Made by a program: the position numbers and the translations under genes. From contig NZ_CP109443.1 of the NCBI RefSeq assembly GCF_036227205.1, positions 1 through 40,608 of the forward strand: 40,608 nt of DNA. Reading direction: 5' to 3'. The notes below the pieces were generated by a model that saw nothing but the letters and a program-made list of their open reading frames with translations, had not been told where the DNA came from and ran no database searches. Shown here one piece after another: positions 12,860 to 24,065 of the stretch (position 1 is the stretch's first letter; every line of letters begins with the position of its first letter). Origin of the DNA: Amycolatopsis sp. NBC_01480 (GTDB taxonomy: Bacteria; Actinomycetota; Actinomycetes; Mycobacteriales; Pseudonocardiaceae).

Positions 12860-13155
12860 TCAAGCGACTGCAGGACGTAATGGACGTCCTCGACGAACGT
12901 CTCAGCGACGGAATGGATCACCACGCCGAACGCAGCGGCTGGACGGTCGAGCGATCGGGCCGGTTCGGGCTGACCAGGACCTACGTCCGGCGGCAGTGCG
13001 GCAAGACGAACAGCGACGCGGAACCGAACCTCGCGCGCGAAGGTCGAACTGATGTTTACCCTGGAAGGCACCAGGTCGGAGACACCGACGTGGTTTTGGC
13101 GTGGCGGGAACTGGATTCGGCCTCCGGCCCCCGCCACTCGACACAAGGAGAGTGA
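12856..13155 (+). CDS. Hypothetical protein (99 aa), coupled to the membrane gene
   Basis: A GTG overlapping the previous stop (GTGA) opens a 99-residue frame beginning VIKRLQDVMDVLDERLSDGM and ending in SGPRHSTQGE. It is polar, with a strand-rich middle (WTVERSGRFGLTRTYVRRQC) and no membrane segment. It ends eight bases before the coupling-protein start, so it is co-transcribed with it. Function not recognised; a transfer accessory role is suggested only by position. Confidence 0.7.
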   Translation: MIKRLQDVMDVLDERLSDGMDHHAERSGWTVERSGRFGLTRTYVRRQCGKTNSDAEPNLAREGRTDVYPGRHQVGDTDVVLAWRELDSASGPRHSTQGE

Positions 13156-13163
13156 ACCTCCGT

Positions 13164-14906
13164 ATGTCTAGCAACGAGTTTGACACGTCCCGTGACGTCA
13201 AGACAGGACTGGGTGGGGCCGCGCTGCTGGCCGGTTCCATCGGCATCGGCCAGCTGCCCTACGACAGCGTGGACAGCATCTACCAGCCCGTCGCGCACGT
13301 CGTCGACACCGCGCTCACGGTCGGCGGGGTCGCCGGCGGCCTGCTGGTCGCCGGATCGGTCGCCCACGGCTTCTACGGCAACAGCCGCACCGCCCACCGG
13401 CGCCGGGTCTTCCACGCGCCCGGCTGGGCCAACCGACACAGCTTCGCCGACCATCTCGGCGCGAAGGCGATCCGCCGGGCCGGGCAGCAGACCCGGCCCT
13501 CGCTGGCCAACCGGGCCGACCGGCGCGCGGCCAAGGCGACGAACTCCGACTTTGGCCAGTTCCTCGGCAAGGCGGTGACGGGCTTCCGCCCGGCCCGCGG
13601 CTCCGAGGTCTTCGCCGACTTCCAGAAGTCCCTGCTCTTCGTCGCCCCGCCGGGCGCGGGCAAGACGGCCCTGATGCTGCACTCGCTGATGGACGCCCCC
13701 GGCTCGGTGCTGGCGACCTCGACGAAGCCGGACATCTACACGCTGACCTCCGAGCTGCGCGCCGAGCTCGGCCCGGTGTACCTGTTCAACCCGCAGAACG
13801 TCGGCGGGCTGCTGAGCACCTTCGGGTGGGACCCGCTGATCGGGTGCGAGCACTACCAGGTCGCGCAGGACCGGGCCACGGCCCTGGTCAAGGGCACGCG
13901 GGCGATCACCGCCATGCAGGAAGCCAGCTGGGGCGAGAAGTGCGTCGAGATCATGAGCAAGTACCTCATGGCGGCCCGGCTGTGGGGACAGGACCTCCGG
14001 GCCGTCGCATACTGGCTGGCGCACCCGGACGACGAGACCGCGGTCCGCATCCTGCAGCAGTTCCCGAGCCACGTCCCGGACGGCTGGGCGGCGTCACTGG
14101 AGGCGGAGATGCGCTCCAGCGCGGACCGCATGAAGGGCTCGATCTGGAGCCTGGCGCGCGGCTCGGTGTCGTTCATGTCGAACCCGGTGATCGCGCAGGC
14201 GTGCACCAAGGGCGCCGGGGAATCCTTTAACGTCAAGGAATTCGCGCTCTCGCGCGGCACGCTGTACCTGCTCGGCGACAGCTCCGACGAGACGATCGCG
14301 CCGCTGCTGGCGGCCCTGACCGACTACGTGTACCGCGACTTCAAGGCGCTGGCACAGGTCCAGCCCGGCGAGCGCCTGGACCCGCCGTTCGGGTTCTTCC
14401 TCGATGAGGTCACCAAGATCACGCCCGTGCCGCTGGCCGACTGGGCCGCGGACATCCGCAGCCACGGCGGCTACATCACGGCCATCACGCAGTCGTTCGC
14501 GCAGATCGAGGACCGCTGGGGCAAGGAAGGCTTGGCCGCGATCAAGGGCCTGTTCTCGAAGGTGATCCTGCCCGGCATCCAGAATCTGCAGGATCTGGAG
14601 GAGCTGTCCAAGCTGGTCGGCACCCGGGAGGTCGACGCCGTGAGCGAGGGCGAGACCGACAGCGCCTCGGGCCGGTCGAAGTCGCGCAACCGCAGCAAGC
14701 GCAAGGAGCTGATCCTGCCGCCGGAGGACATCCGGATGCTGCCCCCGATGCACGCGCTGATCATGATCAACGAGTCGAAGGCGGTCGTGACGAAGTTCAA
14801 GCACGGCCAGATCCGGGCCAAGAAGATGACCGAGGGCCTGCGGGCGGCCAAGGCCAAGGCTCGGCCCGACGACCCGGGCACCGTGAACGCGCAGGTGACG
14901 GCGTGA
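13164..14906 (+). CDS. VirD4/TraG-like type IV coupling protein
   Basis: This 580-residue ATPase has two N-terminal hydrophobic segments (about 15-30 and 46-70), Walker A APPGAGKT (161-168), the TSTKPDIY segment typical of VirD4/TraG/TraD proteins, and Walker B GFFLDEVTKI followed by a SHGGYITAITQS motif III. Such proteins form hexamers at the membrane that dock the relaxosome and pump DNA. ATG 13164 is chosen, with AAGGAG 13 bases upstream; a GTG at 13152 is possible. It is shorter than many TraG proteins. Its C-terminus is basic and its stop overlaps the next gene (GTGA). It pairs functionally with the TraA relaxase downstream. Confidence 0.9.
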   Translation: MSSNEFDTSRDVKTGLGGAALLAGSIGIGQLPYDSVDSIYQPVAHVVDTALTVGGVAGGLLVAGSVAHGFYGNSRTAHRRRVFHAPGWANRHSFADHLGAKAIRRAGQQTRPSLANRADRRAAKATNSDFGQFLGKAVTGFRPARGSEVFADFQKSLLFVAPPGAGKTALMLHSLMDAPGSVLATSTKPDIYTLTSELRAELGPVYLFNPQNVGGLLSTFGWDPLIGCEHYQVAQDRATALVKGTRAITAMQEASWGEKCVEIMSKYLMAARLWGQDLRAVAYWLAHPDDETAVRILQQFPSHVPDGWAASLEAEMRSSADRMKGSIWSLARGSVSFMSNPVIAQACTKGAGESFNVKEFALSRGTLYLLGDSSDETIAPLLAALTDYVYRDFKALAQVQPGERLDPPFGFFLDEVTKITPVPLADWAADIRSHGGYITAITQSFAQIEDRWGKEGLAAIKGLFSKVILPGIQNLQDLEELSKLVGTREVDAVSEGETDSASGRSKSRNRSKRKELILPPEDIRMLPPMHALIMINESKAVVTKFKHGQIRAKKMTEGLRAAKAKARPDDPGTVNAQVTA

Positions 14907-17796: not shown

Positions 17797-17834
17797 CCTC
17801 TGACCGGCCGGACCTGCGCCGGACCGGTCAGAGG
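17797..17834. terminator. Bidirectional terminator at the traA 3' end
   Basis: CCTCTGACCGG (17797-17807) and CCGGTCAGAGG (17824-17834) are perfect 11-bp arms. The hairpin overlaps the traA stop codon and separates two convergent genes. T tracts are short on both sides. Confidence 0.65.
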
Positions 17835-20800
17835 TGCATCTCGCGCTCGGCGTTCCGGGACTGCTCGCGGGCCTGCTGAGCGGCCAGGTCGCGCAGCCGC
17901 TGCTGCTGGTTCTCCTGCTGGGCCTCGCGGTCGACGCGCTCGCGGTCGGCCCGGCGGCGCTCCTGCTCGGCGGCCTCGTCGCGGTCGGTGTCCCACCCGC
18001 TGCGCAGGTCCCGCCCGGCGATCGTCTCGTCCGAGAGCTTCGCGACGGTCTCGGCGTTCTTGATGGTCAGGTCCACGTCGTCGCGGACCTTGCCCAGCGC
18101 CACCCGGTCGGAGGCCTCGGCCTCGATCGGGAACAGCTGCTCCTGGGCCGGGTCGACCTCGACCGGCGCGGGGAACCGCTCCTCGTCGACCTCGGCCATC
18201 TCGTCGAGCCGGTACCGGGTGCCGTAGTCGCCCCGCTCGTCCTCGCGGTCCGCTTCGGCGGGCTTGCTGGCCTTCTCGGCGTCCTCGCGCTGCTGGTCCA
18301 GCTCGTCCCACGTGACGTCCTCGACGACGTCGGCGTCCTCGATGTCGGCCTCGGCCTGCACCTGGCGCTCGTCGGCGGACTCGGGCTCGGCGGGCAGCAG
18401 CTCGCCGTCGAGCGCGTCGTCGACCGCCAGCTCCGTCCCCGCGACCGGCGCGTCGGCGTCGACGGCCGGGTCCGTGCTGACCTCGGTCTCGAACAGCGTC
18501 GGCTCGTCGGCCTCGACGTCCGGACCTGCCGCCGTGTCCTGCTCGGCCTCGACGGCCTCGGGCTCGACCACCTCGGCGTCGACGACCTCGACCTGCGGCT
18601 CGACGACGGGGCGGTCCTCATCCATCGGCAGCAGTTCGCCCTCGACGGCCGAAGCGTCGTACTCGGCGGCCGCGACGCGGGCGTAGTCGGTGTTCGCGCG
18701 GCCGCGCTCGCCGAGCAGGGCCATCTGCTCGGCCTCGTCGGGCTGCTCGACCTGCAGCTCGCCCCGCCGGTCCAGCTCTTCGGTCGCGATGGCGGCCTTG
18801 TCGGCCACCTCGGTGGTGTGGGCGGCCCACCGTTCGCGGGCCTCCTCCAGGCGCTCGTACCGCTCGGCCGCGGCGGCGTGCCGCTCGCGCAGCCGGTCGG
18901 CGCGCTCGGCGCGGTCGACCAGCTGCTGCAGCTCCGGCGTGATCTCGCCCTCGGTCACCGCGGCCTCGGCCTCGACCTGGGCCCAGCGGGTCACCGACTC
19001 GCGCCGGTACTCCTCGGCCAGGATCTCGGCCTGCTCCAGCTCGCGGGCGACGTAGACCGGCGCCCACTCCTGCTCGCGCTCCCAGCGGTCGACCTGCGCG
19101 CGCAGCTCGTCGACCGAGAGTGTCTGGTGGTCGGCCTGCTGCTCCGGCCGTCCCAGCGCCTCCCACGCCCGGTGCCACGTGATGTGCTGAACCGGGTCCT
19201 GCTCGCGCGACGGCGCCGAGCCGATGGTCATCTGGTCGTCGTCGATCCCGTACATCTCGCGGTACGTGCCCACGGCGGCGACGCGCGCGGCCCAGTCCTG
19301 GCGGGCGGCCATGTCGGTCTCGTCGGGCAGTGGGCCGAGCTCCATCAGTGCCCAGTCCGGCGGCGCGAGCACGGCGGCGCGGGCCATCATCTCGGTCCGC
19401 TCGTCCATCTTGCGGCCGAGCTCCTGGGCGTACTCGCTGACGGTGCCCGCGGCCGACTGCAGGCGGCGCGTCCACCGGCCCGGGACCGGCCGGTCGCCGG
19501 CGGCCGCCACGATCTTCTCGATCCGCGAGCGGAGCGTGGCGCTCATCGACGTGGCGTTGTCCAGCGAGCGCTCGTCGGCGGCCAGCGCGGCGGTCAGGAC
19601 GCGCTCGACGTCGAACCCGCGCAGTTCGGCGTTCTGCAGCGACGTCATCAGCCGCTCGTGGCCCTCTTCCTTGCTGATCCAGTCCAGCCGGTCCGGGCCG
19701 AGCCCGGCGAGCAGGACGTCGTTGTGGTGGTCGGCCATCGCGTCGCGCGCGGCCAGCGTCCACACCGCGCCGATCTCCTGCAGCGAGTCGGCCGACTCCA
19801 GCGCCGCGCGGTAGGTCTCGGTGGCCGAAACCTGCGCGCCGTCGTTGCCCAGAACCTCGCGCAGCACGTCGGTCGCGGCGACGCTGTAGGTCTCCGGGTC
19901 GTGCTGGTCGGCGTCGGACTCGGTAACCGCGTAGAAGTAGTTCGCGTCCCGGCCTCGGGTGCCCTCGACGTAGGCCGAGTTGCGGGACATGCCGCGCTCG
20001 ACCAGCGAGTGCGAGGTGTCGGTGGTGCGGCCCTGCACCGAGTGCACAGTGCCCGCGTATGCGAGGGTCGCGTGGTCCTCGACGTAGTCGGGCAGCAGCC
20101 AGACCTTCGAGCCGTCGCGGTGGCGCTCGACCTCCAGGCGGCCGCGCTCGTCGACCCCGAGCACGGTCATGAGCTCGCGGTTAACGACCATCCGCCCGTT
20201 TTCGCTGACCGGGTTGTGGTCGTTGAGTCGAGTCTGGATGACGTCGCCGACACCGCACGCGTTGTCATCGCTAAGCCGCGCGATCTCTTCGCCGCTGACC
20301 TTCCCGAGGGCGACCAGCTCATCCCGAACGCGCCGGGAAAGCTCGGCGGCGTCCTCGTTCGACTTGACGACCAGGACGGACTCGCGGCCTTCGAGGACGT
20401 CGGCCATGTAGCCGCGCACCGCGGCCTCGCCCATCTCGACCTTCGAGCCGCCACGCAGTCGACCGTGCTGCTCGTAGGCGGTCAGCGCCTCGGCGTCGCC
20501 GACGCGGAACTTCAGGCTGGCGTCCTGCTCCCACTGGTTACGGAAGCGCCAGACCTGCGCGAGCTCGAACGGGGTCGCGTCGCGGGTCATCAGGTCGAGC
20601 AGGCCGCCGGTGCCCACGGCGGCGAGCTGGTGGTGGTCCCCGGTGTACAGCAACTTGCCGTCCGCCTGGCGGACCAGGCGCGCGATCTTCGCCAGCTTGT
20701 CGGTGTCGGCCATCCCGGCCTCGTCGACCACGATCATGGTCCCGCGCGCCAGTGCCTCCTTCGGTGCGCTGCCGTCCTCGGGCATGTACTTCGCCAGGAA

Positions 20801-22660
20801 CATGGCCGTGTTCAGCGCCTCCAGGCCCTCGCCTTCGAGCACGTCGGTAGCGCGCTGGCTCGTCGCCAGGCCCATCACCGGCGCGCCGAACTGCTCGCGC
20901 CACAGCCGGTCCAGCTGGCCCACGGTCGTGGACTTGCCGGTCCCGGCCGGGCCGATCAACGTGTCGGCGGCCTTGCCGCTGGTGAGGATGCCGACGACGG
21001 CGTTCAGCTGGTCCGGCGACAGTCCGGCGGCCTGCAGGTCGGCCCGCACCGCGGCGACCCGCTCGGCGACCAGCTGCGGACCGGCGACCGTGTGCGCCTC
21101 GGCGACCAGCGCCTTCTCGGCCGAGATCTGGTCACGCGTGGCGTAGCGCAGCGACGACGCGGCCCGGTAGATCGGCTGGCCCTCAGCGACGCCACCCTCG
21201 CGCAGCGCGTCGGGGACGCGCACCCGGTCGCGACCGCTGAGCGCGAGGACGTCGGCCGGGCCCTCCGGCGACACCGCGCGGGCCACCAGGCGGTTGATCT
21301 CCTCGGGCGCGGCCTGGCCCCACGAGACCTCGCCGATCAGCTTGTTCAACTCCAACGCCAAGGCCGTCTCGTCCCACGTGGCGTGCATGCCCTGCGTCCG
21401 GTTCACGGCCTCGACGATCAGCTCGTCCTCGGTCGCGAACTTCGGCTGACCGGCGGGCAGGCCGTCCTTCGCGATCTTCTCGGCAGCGGCGGCGACGTTG
21501 GCGACCTGGTCCTTCAGCACGTCCTCGCCCTGGCGACGGGCGTAGCGCTCGGCCAGCGCCGCAGGCGACTCGACGCTCTTCGCCTTGCGGGTGTTGGCCC
21601 ACGCCTCGCGCCGCATCGCGGCCATCGCCTGACGACCCGGCTCGTGGCCGTGCTCGGTGCGGTAGTCCTCGACCAGGGTCTCGAGTCGCTTGTCGATCGC
21701 GGCCCGCCGGCCGGACGACTCGTCGCACAGAACGCGGTCGACGCCGACGATCTCGCGGGTCTTGCCGTCCGCGCGCCACGCGAACCGAGCACCGGTCGCC
21801 TCGGTGACCAGCTCCTCCACGCGGCGCTCGTACACGACGTCCGCCGCGCCCTTGAGCGGCTTGAACTGCTGGCCGTCGACCGCGTAGATCCGGCCGTCCT
21901 CGGTCATCGTGCGGTTCAGGATCGCGGCGTGCGTGTGGATGTGCGGGTCGCCCTCACGGCTGGAGGAGTGCTCCCACAGCGTCATGACCAGACCCTTGAC
22001 CTTGGCGTACTCGCCGACCGTCGCGCGGGTTCCATCCTCGCGCGTGACCGTGGTGTGGCGGCCGACGCGGGTCGTCGTCACCCCGCTCTGGATGAAGTCG
22101 AGCGCTTCGCGGACCGCGCGGTTGTGTGCCTCGGTGACCTTCGCTGCGAGCTCGTGCTGGCCGTTAGCCTCCAGCGCCGCGCGGTACACGCTGACGCTCT
22201 TCACCGGCGAGAAAGTCAGGTCGTAGTAGCTCACGGCCTGCCGCTTGGTCGCCCTCACCTCCCGGCGGATCTGCTCCTGCCGCTCCTCGCCCGCGTTCGG
22301 CTCGGCGGCGAGCGCGGCGGCCAGCCGGTCGGCCTGGCTCGCGTAGGTCCGCGGCCTGCGGCCGAGCGGGACCGCGTTGCCCTCGGCGTCGGTCTTGTCG
22401 AAGTGCTCCAGGCGCCCGTACACGGCGCGCATCTGCTCCGCCGTAACTTGTTGGCCATCGGCCAACCCGAGCATTTCCAGGCCGTTACCAGCCCAAACGC
22501 CGTCCGGCTCGCCGAGCTCGGCACCCTTGAGCATGTACTCCGCACCGTGGCTCGACGCGTCCCGTGAATGCGCAGCGTGATCGTGCTCCGCGCAGCCGGC
22601 GGCCCGCAGCAGGTATTCGGCACCTGCCATCCCGGCCGAGATCGCGGTCATGCGGAGCAT
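17828..22660 (-). CDS. traA: TraA-type MobF conjugative relaxase-helicase
   Basis: This 1610-residue protein is a MobF relaxase fused to an SF1 helicase. The TrwC-like N-terminus has candidate nicking tyrosines in AEYLLRAAG (Y16) and AEYMLKGAE (Y42), the SYYDLTFSPVKS motif (144-155) and the metal-binding triad HIHTH (240-244). The helicase shows Walker A GPAGTGKS (570-577), Walker B VVDEAGM (644-650), TGDHHQL (673-679) and a late VHSVQGRTTD motif. A long acidic, coiled-coil C-terminus follows. It nicks oriT, stays bound to the 5' end and unwinds the transferred strand, handing it to the coupling protein. The candidate oriT lies 0.45-0.55 kb upstream. ATG 22660 lacks a strong ribosome site, but the sequence after it matches the usual family start (MLRMTAISAG). 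Confidence 0.95.
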   Translation of the reverse strand: MLRMTAISAGMAGAEYLLRAAGCAEHDHAAHSRDASSHGAEYMLKGAELGEPDGVWAGNGLEMLGLADGQQVTAEQMRAVYGRLEHFDKTDAEGNAVPLGRRPRTYASQADRLAAALAAEPNAGEERQEQIRREVRATKRQAVSYYDLTFSPVKSVSVYRAALEANGQHELAAKVTEAHNRAVREALDFIQSGVTTTRVGRHTTVTREDGTRATVGEYAKVKGLVMTLWEHSSSREGDPHIHTHAAILNRTMTEDGRIYAVDGQQFKPLKGAADVVYERRVEELVTEATGARFAWRADGKTREIVGVDRVLCDESSGRRAAIDKRLETLVEDYRTEHGHEPGRQAMAAMRREAWANTRKAKSVESPAALAERYARRQGEDVLKDQVANVAAAAEKIAKDGLPAGQPKFATEDELIVEAVNRTQGMHATWDETALALELNKLIGEVSWGQAAPEEINRLVARAVSPEGPADVLALSGRDRVRVPDALREGGVAEGQPIYRAASSLRYATRDQISAEKALVAEAHTVAGPQLVAERVAAVRADLQAAGLSPDQLNAVVGILTSGKAADTLIGPAGTGKSTTVGQLDRLWREQFGAPVMGLATSQRATDVLEGEGLEALNTAMFLAKYMPEDGSAPKEALARGTMIVVDEAGMADTDKLAKIARLVRQADGKLLYTGDHHQLAAVGTGGLLDLMTRDATPFELAQVWRFRNQWEQDASLKFRVGDAEALTAYEQHGRLRGGSKVEMGEAAVRGYMADVLEGRESVLVVKSNEDAAELSRRVRDELVALGKVSGEEIARLSDDNACGVGDVIQTRLNDHNPVSENGRMVVNRELMTVLGVDERGRLEVERHRDGSKVWLLPDYVEDHATLAYAGTVHSVQGRTTDTSHSLVERGMSRNSAYVEGTRGRDANYFYAVTESDADQHDPETYSVAATDVLREVLGNDGAQVSATETYRAALESADSLQEIGAVWTLAARDAMADHHNDVLLAGLGPDRLDWISKEEGHERLMTSLQNAELRGFDVERVLTAALAADERSLDNATSMSATLRSRIEKIVAAAGDRPVPGRWTRRLQSAAGTVSEYAQELGRKMDERTEMMARAAVLAPPDWALMELGPLPDETDMAARQDWAARVAAVGTYREMYGIDDDQMTIGSAPSREQDPVQHITWHRAWEALGRPEQQADHQTLSVDELRAQVDRWEREQEWAPVYVARELEQAEILAEEYRRESVTRWAQVEAEAAVTEGEITPELQQLVDRAERADRLRERHAAAAERYERLEEARERWAAHTTEVADKAAIATEELDRRGELQVEQPDEAEQMALLGERGRANTDYARVAAAEYDASAVEGELLPMDEDRPVVEPQVEVVDAEVVEPEAVEAEQDTAAGPDVEADEPTLFETEVSTDPAVDADAPVAGTELAVDDALDGELLPAEPESADERQVQAEADIEDADVVEDVTWDELDQQREDAEKASKPAEADREDERGDYGTRYRLDEMAEVDEERFPAPVEVDPAQEQLFPIEAEASDRVALGKVRDDVDLTIKNAETVAKLSDETIAGRDLRSGWDTDRDEAAEQERRRADRERVDREAQQENQQQRLRDLAAQQAREQSRNAEREMHL

Positions 22661-23105
22661 GAAGCGATCTTACCAGGCGCATCGCTGATGCATTGGCACA
22701 CGATCTTGAATCCTTTTATCTCTTGGGTGAGCAGATGACAACCGGAACGGCAATCGAGAACTAGCAGGGCACAAAACAGGCGGACACACAGGTGAGGGAC
22801 AGAAAGTGGACATAAACACACAGGGTGACAGCAGGGCAGGGCGGAAGGCACCCCGGTTGGCCCGCACCTCCGGCCCGGACGCGCCCCGCGCGGCTGGGCC
22901 GGGCCTCCCCCCGAGCCGCCGCCTGCTGCTCCCCAACCCAGACACGGCATCCGCAATGCAGCGGCCCGCGCCAGCTCGCCCCGCCCCCAGTCGCGTGCCT
23001 CGACCGCGAGCAGAGCCCCCGCTTGACCGGAGGGCGGCAACGGTCCCGGGTCGGTTCTTCCCTCCCCCGCCCCCGGCCAGCTTCGGCGGCCGTCCGGCCC
23101 GAGGA
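22661..23105. other. traA leader with direct repeats
   Basis: No gene is supported here. The part next to traA (22680-22850) is relatively AT-rich and contains two related direct repeats, ACACACAGGTGAGGGACAG (22784-22802) and ACACACAGGGTGACAG (22816-22831), possible binding sites for a transfer regulator or relaxosome protein. The remainder to 23105 is GC-rich without clear structure. Confidence 0.5.
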
Positions 23106-23214
23106 CTGAACCAAGGGTTCAGCGAAAAAGGGCACCTTTTGCCATATCTTGCTCTACCGGCCCAGCGGCTGAGCGCGGCCAGAGAGTAACTCTCTGGCAT
23201 ATCTTGCTCTACCG
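23106..23214. other. Candidate origin of transfer (oriT)
   Basis: Three perfect hairpins, each with a 3-base loop, lie in 92 bases: CTGAACC-AAG-GGTTCAG (23106-23122), AAAAGG-GCA-CCTTTT (23126-23140) and CCAGAGAG-TAA-CTCTCTGG (23179-23197). The second and third are each followed, within two bases, by an identical 17-mer, CATATCTTGCTCTACCG (23143-23159 and 23198-23214). In MobF systems the relaxase recognises an inverted repeat just 5' of nic, so the 17-mer is the best nic-site candidate. The site lies between traA and a coiled-coil HTH gene. 23215-23403 holds no other supported feature. Confidence 0.75.
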
Positions 23215-23403
23215 CTTCCGCCCCGCCGGCCCTCCTGCTCGGCGCCCTTCGCTGACCGATCTCCGGCCGAAAATCGTGCACCAAAGCCAGACACAAGGTG
23301 GCCGTCGTCTCGCGGCCAGTGACGCTCGTCCCCGGCCGCTCACACGCGGCCCTGGAACGCGAAAAAGGGCCGACCGCAGCCGACCCTCGCTCGCACCGGG
23401 AGG

Positions 23404-23952
23404 TCACGCGCTGGCGGCATCCTCCTTGGATGCAGTGCCCCCGCTGGCGAGCCCGTCTGAGACGGGACGCTGCTGCACGTCCTCCACCGGAGGCGGCTCG
23501 GTCACGCCCGCCACGGCGGCGGATGGAACGCTCGCGACAGGACGTCCGACCGGACTCGGCTCCGACGCAGCCGTGCCCTTCGCCTCCCCCTCGCCCCTGG
23601 CGTCCTTGACCATCCGGCGCACCCGCTTCACCGACAGGCCTACCCACCCGGCAACCTCCTCGACCGACCGGCCGAGCTCGGTCAGCTCGGCCAGCGACCT
23701 GGCGGCGTCGCGCTCGCTCGCCACCCGCCGAGACACGGCGGCCGTCCGCAGCTGCTCCGCCTTCGCCTCCAGTGCCGCCAAGTCCTTGGCGAGCTTGGCG
23801 TCGACCCCATCGCCCGCCTTGACTGCGGACGCGTACCGAGCGAGCGCCGCGTCCTCGCGCGTCTTGCGCTCCGCCGCCGCCTTGTCCGCCGCGTCCCGCC
23901 GCGCCTTCAGCTCCGCCAACGTCCCCGGCTTGCCCTGCCCCTGCTGCGCCAT
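23404..23952 (-). CDS. Coiled-coil HTH protein beside oriT, possible relaxosome accessory
   Basis: ATG 23952 (GGAG about 9 bases upstream) gives 182 residues. Residues 12-90 are a charged coiled coil (LAELKARRDAADKAAAERKT and on), followed by a helix-turn-helix-like segment (about 95-116, RSVEEVAGWVGLSVKRVRRM) and a disordered Pro/Ala tail. It ends 190 bases from the oriT candidate and points toward it, so a role in binding oriT or regulating transfer, like accessory proteins of other relaxosomes, is plausible. Homology to a named family is not recognised. An upstream in-frame extension to 24057 crosses the operator at 24034 and is unlikely. Confidence 0.7.
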   Translation of the reverse strand: MAQQGQGKPGTLAELKARRDAADKAAAERKTREDAALARYASAVKAGDGVDAKLAKDLAALEAKAEQLRTAAVSRRVASERDAARSLAELTELGRSVEEVAGWVGLSVKRVRRMVKDARGEGEAKGTAASEPSPVGRPVASVPSAAVAGVTEPPPVEDVQQRPVSDGLASGGTASKEDAASA

Positions 23953-24033
23953 CTCGTGCTCCAAGTCCGTTCCTGCTGGTCCGACAGTGATCACCACAAG
24001 CCTAGCCCGAATGCCCGGCGCGAACCGGCGTTG

Positions 24034-24051
24034 CTTATCTGCCCAGATAAG
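24034..24051. promoter_or_regulatory. Palindromic operator CTTATCTG-CC-CAGATAAG
   Basis: A perfect 18-bp palindrome (8-bp arms, 2-bp centre) lies 15 bases before the GTG of the 191-residue gene and between two divergent genes. Related sites occur at 24674-24687 and at 30500-30530 and 30586-30598, suggesting one regulator. Confidence 0.7.
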
Positions 24052-24065
24052 AGACACTGGTCGGC

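What the first reader, a model, noticed from the sequence alone, without database searches (positions are those of the whole stretch)
23106..23214. Candidate oriT: three 3-nt-loop hairpins and a twin 17-bp repeat
Three perfect hairpins with 3-base loops occur in 92 bases, and two of them sit directly before identical CATATCTTGCTCTACCG copies 55 bp apart. The site lies between the traA gene and a coiled-coil HTH gene. MobF relaxases recognise a hairpin just 5' of nic. Two complete hairpin-plus-17-mer units would mean a double nic site or a nic site plus a termination site, which would be unusual.
Basis: partly seen in the sequence, partly recalled or inferred. Interest (0 to 1): 0.82.

Follow-up and report, generated by a model that had tools for sequence, protein, structure and literature searches.

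The report
Paired borrowed transfer-start sites on plasmid
A plasmid of a soil bacterium carries two side-by-side DNA start sites for transfer between cells that look made for a different transfer enzyme than the one it encodes, so it may be able to hitch a ride with other plasmids.

Summary
In detail: two identical 17-mers 55 bp apart, each right behind a perfect hairpin (23126-23214). The oriT reading is supported; its link to the neighbouring MobF relaxase TraA is not. In 16 of 25 related MobF loci another site, hairpin + CATAGGTGTG, lies just 5' of traA, and 0 of 25 have the 17-mer within 1 kb. Of 39 examined 17-mer relatives in family genomes, 5 sit behind a hairpin and 3 of these 5 lie beside MOBP-type relaxase genes; 0 of the other 34 do. 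As an independent test, Rhodococcus opacus pRoPD630_3, typed MOBP, has hairpin + ATATCTTGCTCTGC about 160 bp 5' of its mobC-like gene. TATCTTG^C is one base from the published MOBP nick consensus. No PF03432 relaxase was detected in the host genome. Best reading: two orphan MOBP-type oriT cores ('oriT mimics') in tandem on a MobF plasmid, usable in trans by another element's relaxase. Nicking and transfer are untested, no close relative of the plasmid could be read, and use by TraA is not excluded. New variant of a known kind.

The parts
23126..23140 (+). core-proximal hairpin 1, AAAAGG-gca-CCTTTT (a further GC/GC pairing across a bulge is possible, by eye)
23143..23159 (+). MOBP-type nick core 1, CATATCTTGCTCTACCG; predicted nick between G23151 and C23152 (inferred from the MOBP consensus)
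23178..23198 (+). core-proximal hairpin 2, GCCAGAGAG-taa-CTCTCTGGC
23198..23214 (+). MOBP-type nick core 2, identical 17-mer; predicted nick between G23206 and C23207 (inferred)
23106..23122 (+). third hairpin CTGAACC-aag-GGTTCAG, not attached to a core; Amycolatopsis sp. AA4 (L202) also has two further hairpins 5' of its core-proximal one; role unknown
22679..22702 (+). hairpin GCATC-gct-GATGC + ATTGGCACACG at the place where other MobF loci have hairpin + CATAGGTGTG; core diverged (5 of 10 letters, by eye), candidate MobF site
17828..22660 (-). traA, MobF relaxase-helicase (1610 aa); Y16, Y42, D147, H231, H242, H244 invariant in 9 aligned relaxase domains
23404..24057 (-). coiled-coil + HTH protein; similar proteins (by eye) at the same place in L024, L025 and L041; likely MobF accessory protein
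13101..14906 (+). VirD4/TraG-type coupling protein

Best explanation
The 23126-23214 region is a tandem pair of MOBP-type (RP4/VirD2-like) oriT cores: each is a hairpin followed within 0-2 nt by a nick core (C)ATATCTTG^CTC on the + strand. The plasmid's own relaxase is of another family (MobF), and no MOBP relaxase or MobC was detected on it, so the sites most likely work in trans: when an element with the matching MOBP relaxase/MobC is in the cell, that relaxase nicks one of the cores and the plasmid is exported, leading strand away from traA, with traA entering last. The two different stems on identical cores would suit helpers, or accessory proteins, of different specificity, or give one spare. 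Shown: the anatomy, the association of hairpin-bearing relatives with MOBP genes, absence of the 17-mer at the MobF loci read, no PF03432 match in the genome. Inferred: nick position, action in trans, benefit of the pair.
For: Of 39 examined non-window matches (of 42) to the 17-mer at up to 2 mismatches in 297 family genomes, 5 have a >=6-bp hairpin ending within 8 nt 5'; these 5 all keep CATATCTTGCTC. 3 of the 5 have a PF03432 relaxase within 1.5 kb (L202, L203, L205; L202 with MobC), on the strand opposite the site; 0 of the other 34 have a tblastn hit to such a relaxase (Fisher p 0.001, a grouping made after seeing the hairpins). Independent test: R. opacus pRoPD630_3 (L214), fetched only for its relaxase and typed MOBP by PLSDB, has CTAAAACCC-ca-GGGTTTTAG + AATATCTTGCTCTGC upstream of its mobC-like gene. 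A[TA]CT[TC]GCT lies once on the antisense strand and not on the sense strand in the scanned stretch of 7 of 7 MOBP loci, with a >=5-bp hairpin in 5 of 7 (three of the seven had been chosen by the 17-mer). MOBP consensus (C/T)ATCCTG(C/T) with a variable inverted repeat just 5': PMC3772185 (passages). Host genome: 0 PF03432 matches at E<=0.001; window: no hit to 4 MOBP relaxases (E<=1e-5) or 6 MobC-type proteins (E<=1e-3). Precedent for relaxase-less oriT mimics, sometimes 2 or 3 per plasmid and most often of different subtypes: PMC8136818 (passages).
Against: The core has T where the MOBP consensus has C (ATCTTG for ATCCTG). NCBIfam MobP matches of the L202 and L203 relaxases are far below the curated cut-off, so their MOBP label rests on PF03432 and on homologs that PLSDB types MOBP. 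2 of the 5 hairpin-bearing relatives (L204, L206) have no relaxase in the stretch read, and L205 and L206 share flanking sequence, so the five are not fully independent. 5 further places keep CATATCTTGCTC with neither hairpin nor relaxase (L200, L201, L207, L208, L209). L211 and L212 (relaxase homologs) have the short motif but no hairpin by my rule, and the variant letters of that motif were chosen after reading L211-L213. PLSDB calls L211 non-mobilizable. No close relative of this plasmid could be read (0 of the 79 other genus genomes at E<=1e-60). The window lacks the canonical MobF site, so TraA might use the twin.
Confidence: 0.62

Rival explanations
1. The twin is the oriT of the plasmid's own MobF relaxase TraA, with two nic units (nick plus termination, or double nic).
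For: It lies upstream of traA, pointing away from it like the MobF sites of relatives; a hairpin directly 5' of the core is also the layout of MobF nic sites; the window has no canonical CATAGGTGTG site with a stem; six residues in TraA's first 380 are fixed in its 16-member clade and absent from the 4 outgroup relaxases aligned, so its specificity may have shifted. L025 has a far site GATGCCTTGCTGTATCG (5 mismatches).
Against: 0 of 25 MobF loci have the 17-mer at 4 or fewer mismatches within 1 kb of traA; 16 of 25 have a different site just 5' of traA; hairpin-bearing 17-mer relatives sit beside MOBP genes in 3 of 5, and a TraA tblastn (E<=1e-5) found nothing in those stretches.
Confidence: 0.17
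2. Remnant of a former MOBP mobilisation module: the plasmid once had its own MOBP relaxase/MobC, lost it, and the sites are relics with no present use.
For: No relaxase or MobC detected; L204 and L206 have transposase-type genes near the site and no relaxase in the stretch read.
Against: The two cores are identical over 17 bp and both hairpins are perfect although the stems differ, which suggests upkeep.
Confidence: 0.13
3. Another HUH enzyme's site (rolling-circle double-strand origin) or a binding site for the coiled-coil HTH protein.
For: ATCTTG resembles nick sites of pC194-type rolling-circle plasmids (recalled); an HTH gene is adjacent.
Against: A double-strand DNA binder would not need a different perfect stem at each copy; 3 of 5 hairpin-bearing relatives and the independently fetched L214 have MOBP-type relaxases.
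Confidence: 0.08

Closest known systems
RP4-like MOBP oriT (consensus (C/T)ATCCTG(C/T) behind an inverted repeat; PMC3772185, passages)
   Same: inverted repeat immediately 5' of a TATCxTGC core on one strand
   Different: T for C in the core; two units in 89 bp; no PF03432 relaxase detected in the genome
   Same: hairpin + ATATCTTGCTC, core on the strand opposite the relaxase gene
   Different: one unit found per locus, next to mobC-type and relaxase genes
oriT mimics of staphylococcal plasmids mobilised by pWBG749 (PMC8136818, passages)
   Same: oriT without its relaxase; some plasmids hold 2 or 3, most often of different subtypes
   Different: the documented carriers there lack a relaxase gene, whereas this plasmid has a MobF relaxase; sequence unrelated as far as compared (not aligned)
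F/R1 MobF oriT (oligo CTTGTTTTTGCGTGGGGTGTGGTGCTTTTGGT, PMC4949242, passage)
   Same: inverted repeat 5' of nic (PMC5422253, passages)
   Different: its core GTGGGGTGTGG resembles the CATAGGTGTG site next to actinobacterial traA, not the 17-mer

Membership tests
MOBP-type oriT | nick core (C/T)ATCCTG(C/T) | tested here: inconclusive
   TATCTTGC fits 7 of 8 positions; the same variant in L202, L203, L205 and L214, which have PF03432 or MOBP-typed relaxases
MOBP-type oriT | inverted repeat immediately 5' of the core | tested here: met
   both units
MOBP-type oriT | cut by a MOBP relaxase | not testable with these tools
   needs an oligo cleavage assay
complete MOBP mobilisation module | PF03432 relaxase and MobC adjacent | tested here: not met
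oriT mimic (orphan oriT used in trans) | oriT of a relaxase family not encoded on the replicon | tested here: met
   MobF relaxase found; no MOBP relaxase detected; holds only if the site is a MOBP oriT
oriT mimic (orphan oriT used in trans) | mobilised by a helper element | not testable with these tools
   needs mating
MobF oriT of actinobacterial TraA | hairpin + CATAGGTGTG near traA | tested here: not met
   16 of 25 relatives have it; the twin does not have that core
MobF oriT of actinobacterial TraA | site conserved at traA of relatives | tested here: not met
   0 of 25 loci within 1 kb; the closest TraA clade could not be read

The most novel reading that the evidence does not exclude
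A MobF plasmid hedges its transfer routes: besides its own relaxase it keeps a tandem pair of MOBP oriT mimics whose different stems fit two different helper relaxosomes, so one replicon can leave the cell by its own system or by at least two others.
Probability: 0.3. Interest if true: 0.75.

Novelty: new variant of a known kind. Interest (0 to 1): 0.6.

Why it matters
oriT sites of actinobacterial plasmids seem little charted: a 2021 survey found none of the known oriTDB sequences in its predicted Mycolicibacterium plasmids (PMC8190616, passages). This gives testable motifs for two relaxase families at once (hairpin + ATATCTTGCTC for MOBP; hairpin + CATAGGTGTG for MobF) and suggests that orphan oriT sharing, described for Staphylococcus, E. 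coli and Acinetobacter (PMC8136818, passages), may also link plasmids of antibiotic-producing actinomycetes. Paired identical cores with different stems allow a direct test of stem versus core in choosing the helper.

Tried and rejected
Exact 17-mer in genome contigs: 20 stretches from scattered phyla, about what chance gives for 17 bases (my estimate); not examined further. Plasmid DNA similarity of 23050-23300: 6 records, short matches, none over the twin. I first took the twin as a variant of the far MobF-like site of L024, L025 and L041 (13 of 17 letters to L025, ungapped, by eye); dropped. The window's near-traA stretch also matches the canonical MobF surroundings partly on the other strand (by eye); left open. 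Accessory protein tblastn in plasmids: no match. TraA in the genus: only the own genome. Text searches for ATATCTTGC plus oriT (77 papers hold both) and CATAGGTGTG (80 papers): I saw only the 10 listed each time, by title and start of abstract, and none looked related; this does not show that the motifs are unpublished. Dropped before counting: L029 (MobF locus fetched with only 48 bases upstream), so 25 of 26 fetched MobF loci are counted; 3 of 42 non-window 17-mer places (G181, G289, G225) were not fetched.

Full report
Setting. The window is contig C2 of a 2-contig, 10.1-Mb genome; the protein search gives that contig as 40,608 bases, so the window is the whole contig; its ends do not overlap, so circularity is not shown. 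It encodes a MobF relaxase TraA (17828-22660, minus; NF041492 and PF08751), a VirD4/TraG-type coupling protein (13101-14906), a ParA-type ATPase, SSB, an integrase and a C5 methylase. The genus is that of Amycolatopsis sp. AA4: the same-genus genome G223 has a 306,129-base contig whose relaxase is 100% identical to that of AA4's replicon of the same length.

Observation. Hairpins and 17-mers are as described. At up to 2 mismatches the 17-mer is found only at these two places in the genome. The hairpin cluster alone occurs in 25 of 200 shuffles, the repeat in 2 of 200, but a hairpin abutting a given position is rare (0.28%) and both copies have one. The stems differ, the cores are identical.

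Is it TraA's oriT? TraA relatives on named plasmids are at most about 42% identical (60 of 520 records listed). I fetched 26 MobF loci and dropped one without upstream sequence (L029). In 16 of 25 the best match to CATAGGTGTG near traA is at least 8 of 10, on the strand opposite traA, and directly behind a stem of at least 3 bp; it lies 29-80 nt 5' of the start used, in one (L164) just inside the annotated start. Stems covary (CATT/AATG, CACA/TGTG, CATC/GATG). Two of the 16 (L023, L163) match only 8 of 10, which 43 and 33 of 300 shuffles also reach. L034 and L035 have 9 of 10 without the adjacent stem, L040 has 7 of 10 with a stem, and L032, L038, L039, L166, L167 and L168 fail the rule. The layout lines up without gaps with the F/R1 nic (by eye; oligo in PMC4949242, passage). 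This looks like the MobF oriT of actinobacteria. The window keeps a stem there (GCATC-gct-GATGC at 22679), but its core has diverged (5 of 10), its best match near traA is CACAGGTGAG without a stem, and no canonical site with a stem was found in the window. Within 1 kb upstream of traA the best 17-mer match has 5-7 mismatches in 25 of 25 loci; the shorter MOBP-type motif occurs in 3 of 25 (L028, L036, L040), never with a hairpin.

Where else is the 17-mer? With up to 2 mismatches, 39 of 297 family genomes (own included) match, at 44 places, 2 of them the window's. I examined 39 of the other 42 (not G181, G289, G225), as a rule with 1.5 kb or more on each side, less at contig ends. 5 of 39 have a hairpin of at least 6 bp ending within 8 nt 5' of the match: L202 GGAAAACC-gtata-GGTTTTCC, L203 GCGATCAGC-acg-GCTGATCGC, L204 TTTTCC-ccg-GGAAAA, L205 GTAGACC-gaa-GGTCTAC, L206 AGTAGACC-gaa-GGTCTACT. 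L205 and L206 share flanking sequence, so they are not independent. All five keep CATATCTTGCTC; so do five places without a hairpin (L200, L201, L207, L208, L209). L202, L203 and L205 encode a PF03432 (MobA/VirD2-like) relaxase within 1.5 kb, over the Pfam cut-off, on the strand opposite the site; L202 also has MobC. Their NCBIfam MobP matches, where tested (L202, L203), are below the cut-off. L204 and L206 have transposase or IS21-type genes nearby and no relaxase hit, also in the neighbouring stretches L233 and L234. None of the 34 places without a hairpin has a hit to these relaxases (Fisher p 0.001, a grouping made after the fact). TraA has no tblastn hit in the stretches L171-L209 (E<=1e-5).

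Independent test. Plasmids were then fetched by homology to the L202 relaxase only (4 of 315 records): Saccharothrix AJ9571 (L211), A. keratiniphila pXL100 (L212), Streptomyces NBC_00212 (L213), R. opacus pRoPD630_3 (L214); PLSDB types the last three MOBP and calls L211 non-mobilizable. L214 has CTAAAACCC-ca-GGGTTTTAG + AATATCTTGCTCTGC about 160 bp 5' of its mobC-like gene. L211-L213 have TATCTCGCTCC, TATCTCGCTAC and TAACTCGCTTC upstream of mobC. The motif A[TA]CT[TC]GCT is found once, antisense, and not sense, in the scanned stretch of 7 of 7 MOBP loci, with a hairpin of at least 5 bp in 5 of 7. L202, L203 and L205 had been chosen by the 17-mer, and the variant letters were set after reading L211-L213, so only the L214 match is a clean test. 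In 22 fetched genome stretches (236,717 bases, most chosen for a 17-mer match) 28 motifs occur, 3 with a hairpin of at least 6 bp; each of L202, L203 and L205 has one, which accounts for the three. The window has 5 motifs, 2 with a hairpin, namely the twin.

Literature. MOBP relaxases RP4 TraI and VirD2 require ATCCTG, consensus (C/T)ATCCTG(C/T), behind a more variable inverted repeat (PMC3772185, passages). TATCTTGC differs at one position. Relaxase-less oriT mimics, with some plasmids holding 2 or 3 and most often of different subtypes, are described for staphylococci (PMC8136818, passages).

No cognate enzyme found. PF03432 has no match in the host genome at E<=0.001 (1 of 14 control genomes rings). 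Four MOBP relaxases and six MobC-type proteins have no tblastn hit in the window. The host chromosome has a second MobF relaxase.

Conclusion. The twin is best read as two MOBP-type oriT cores without their relaxase on a MobF plasmid, available to a helper in trans. I rate this 0.62; TraA's own oriT 0.17, a dead relic 0.13, another function 0.08. The nick sites (23151/23152 and 23206/23207), use in trans and the benefit of the pair are inferences.

Noticed in passing
L023-L028, L030, L031, L033, L036, L037, L041, L162-L165, just 5' of traA: Probable MobF oriT of actinobacteria: covarying small hairpin + CATAGGTGTG on the strand opposite traA, 16 of 25 loci (Pseudonocardia, Amycolatopsis, Prauserella, Streptomyces, Natronoglycomyces, Nocardiopsis), similar in layout to the F/R1 nic site.
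   Followed up: partly
L024:1452, L025:2103, L041:4521 (minus strand): A second hairpin site CATC-nnnn-GATG + C(A/C)T(A/T)GCTGT 326-357 nt further from traA in three Amycolatopsis/Prauserella plasmids; the core differs from the near site by GG to GC, the same change as in the G144C variant of the R1 oriT used as a competitor in PMC4949242.
   Followed up: partly
L034, L035 about 400-500 nt 5' of mobF: Streptomyces MobF loci have two CCCATG/CATGGG palindromes (one imperfect in L035) less than about 100 bp apart.
   Followed up: no
window 8030 (minus): CTAGCAA-cg-TTGCTAG followed by CATAGTTGCTAGCA next to parA: possible centromere or origin repeats.
   Followed up: no
G000:C1:7822456-7823652: A second MobF relaxase (open frame 1712 aa) on the host chromosome, about 28% identical to TraA.
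   Followed up: no
L024 and L041: Palindrome (T)ATCTGGCCAGAT(A) near the far site; it seems to recur near the accessory gene, inferred from repeated ORF ends and not counted: possible operator of a plasmid regulator.
   Followed up: no
L204, L206: Hairpin + CATATCTTGCTCCGCCG near transposase/IS21-type genes without a relaxase hit in the stretches read: further possible orphan MOBP oriTs.
   Followed up: partly
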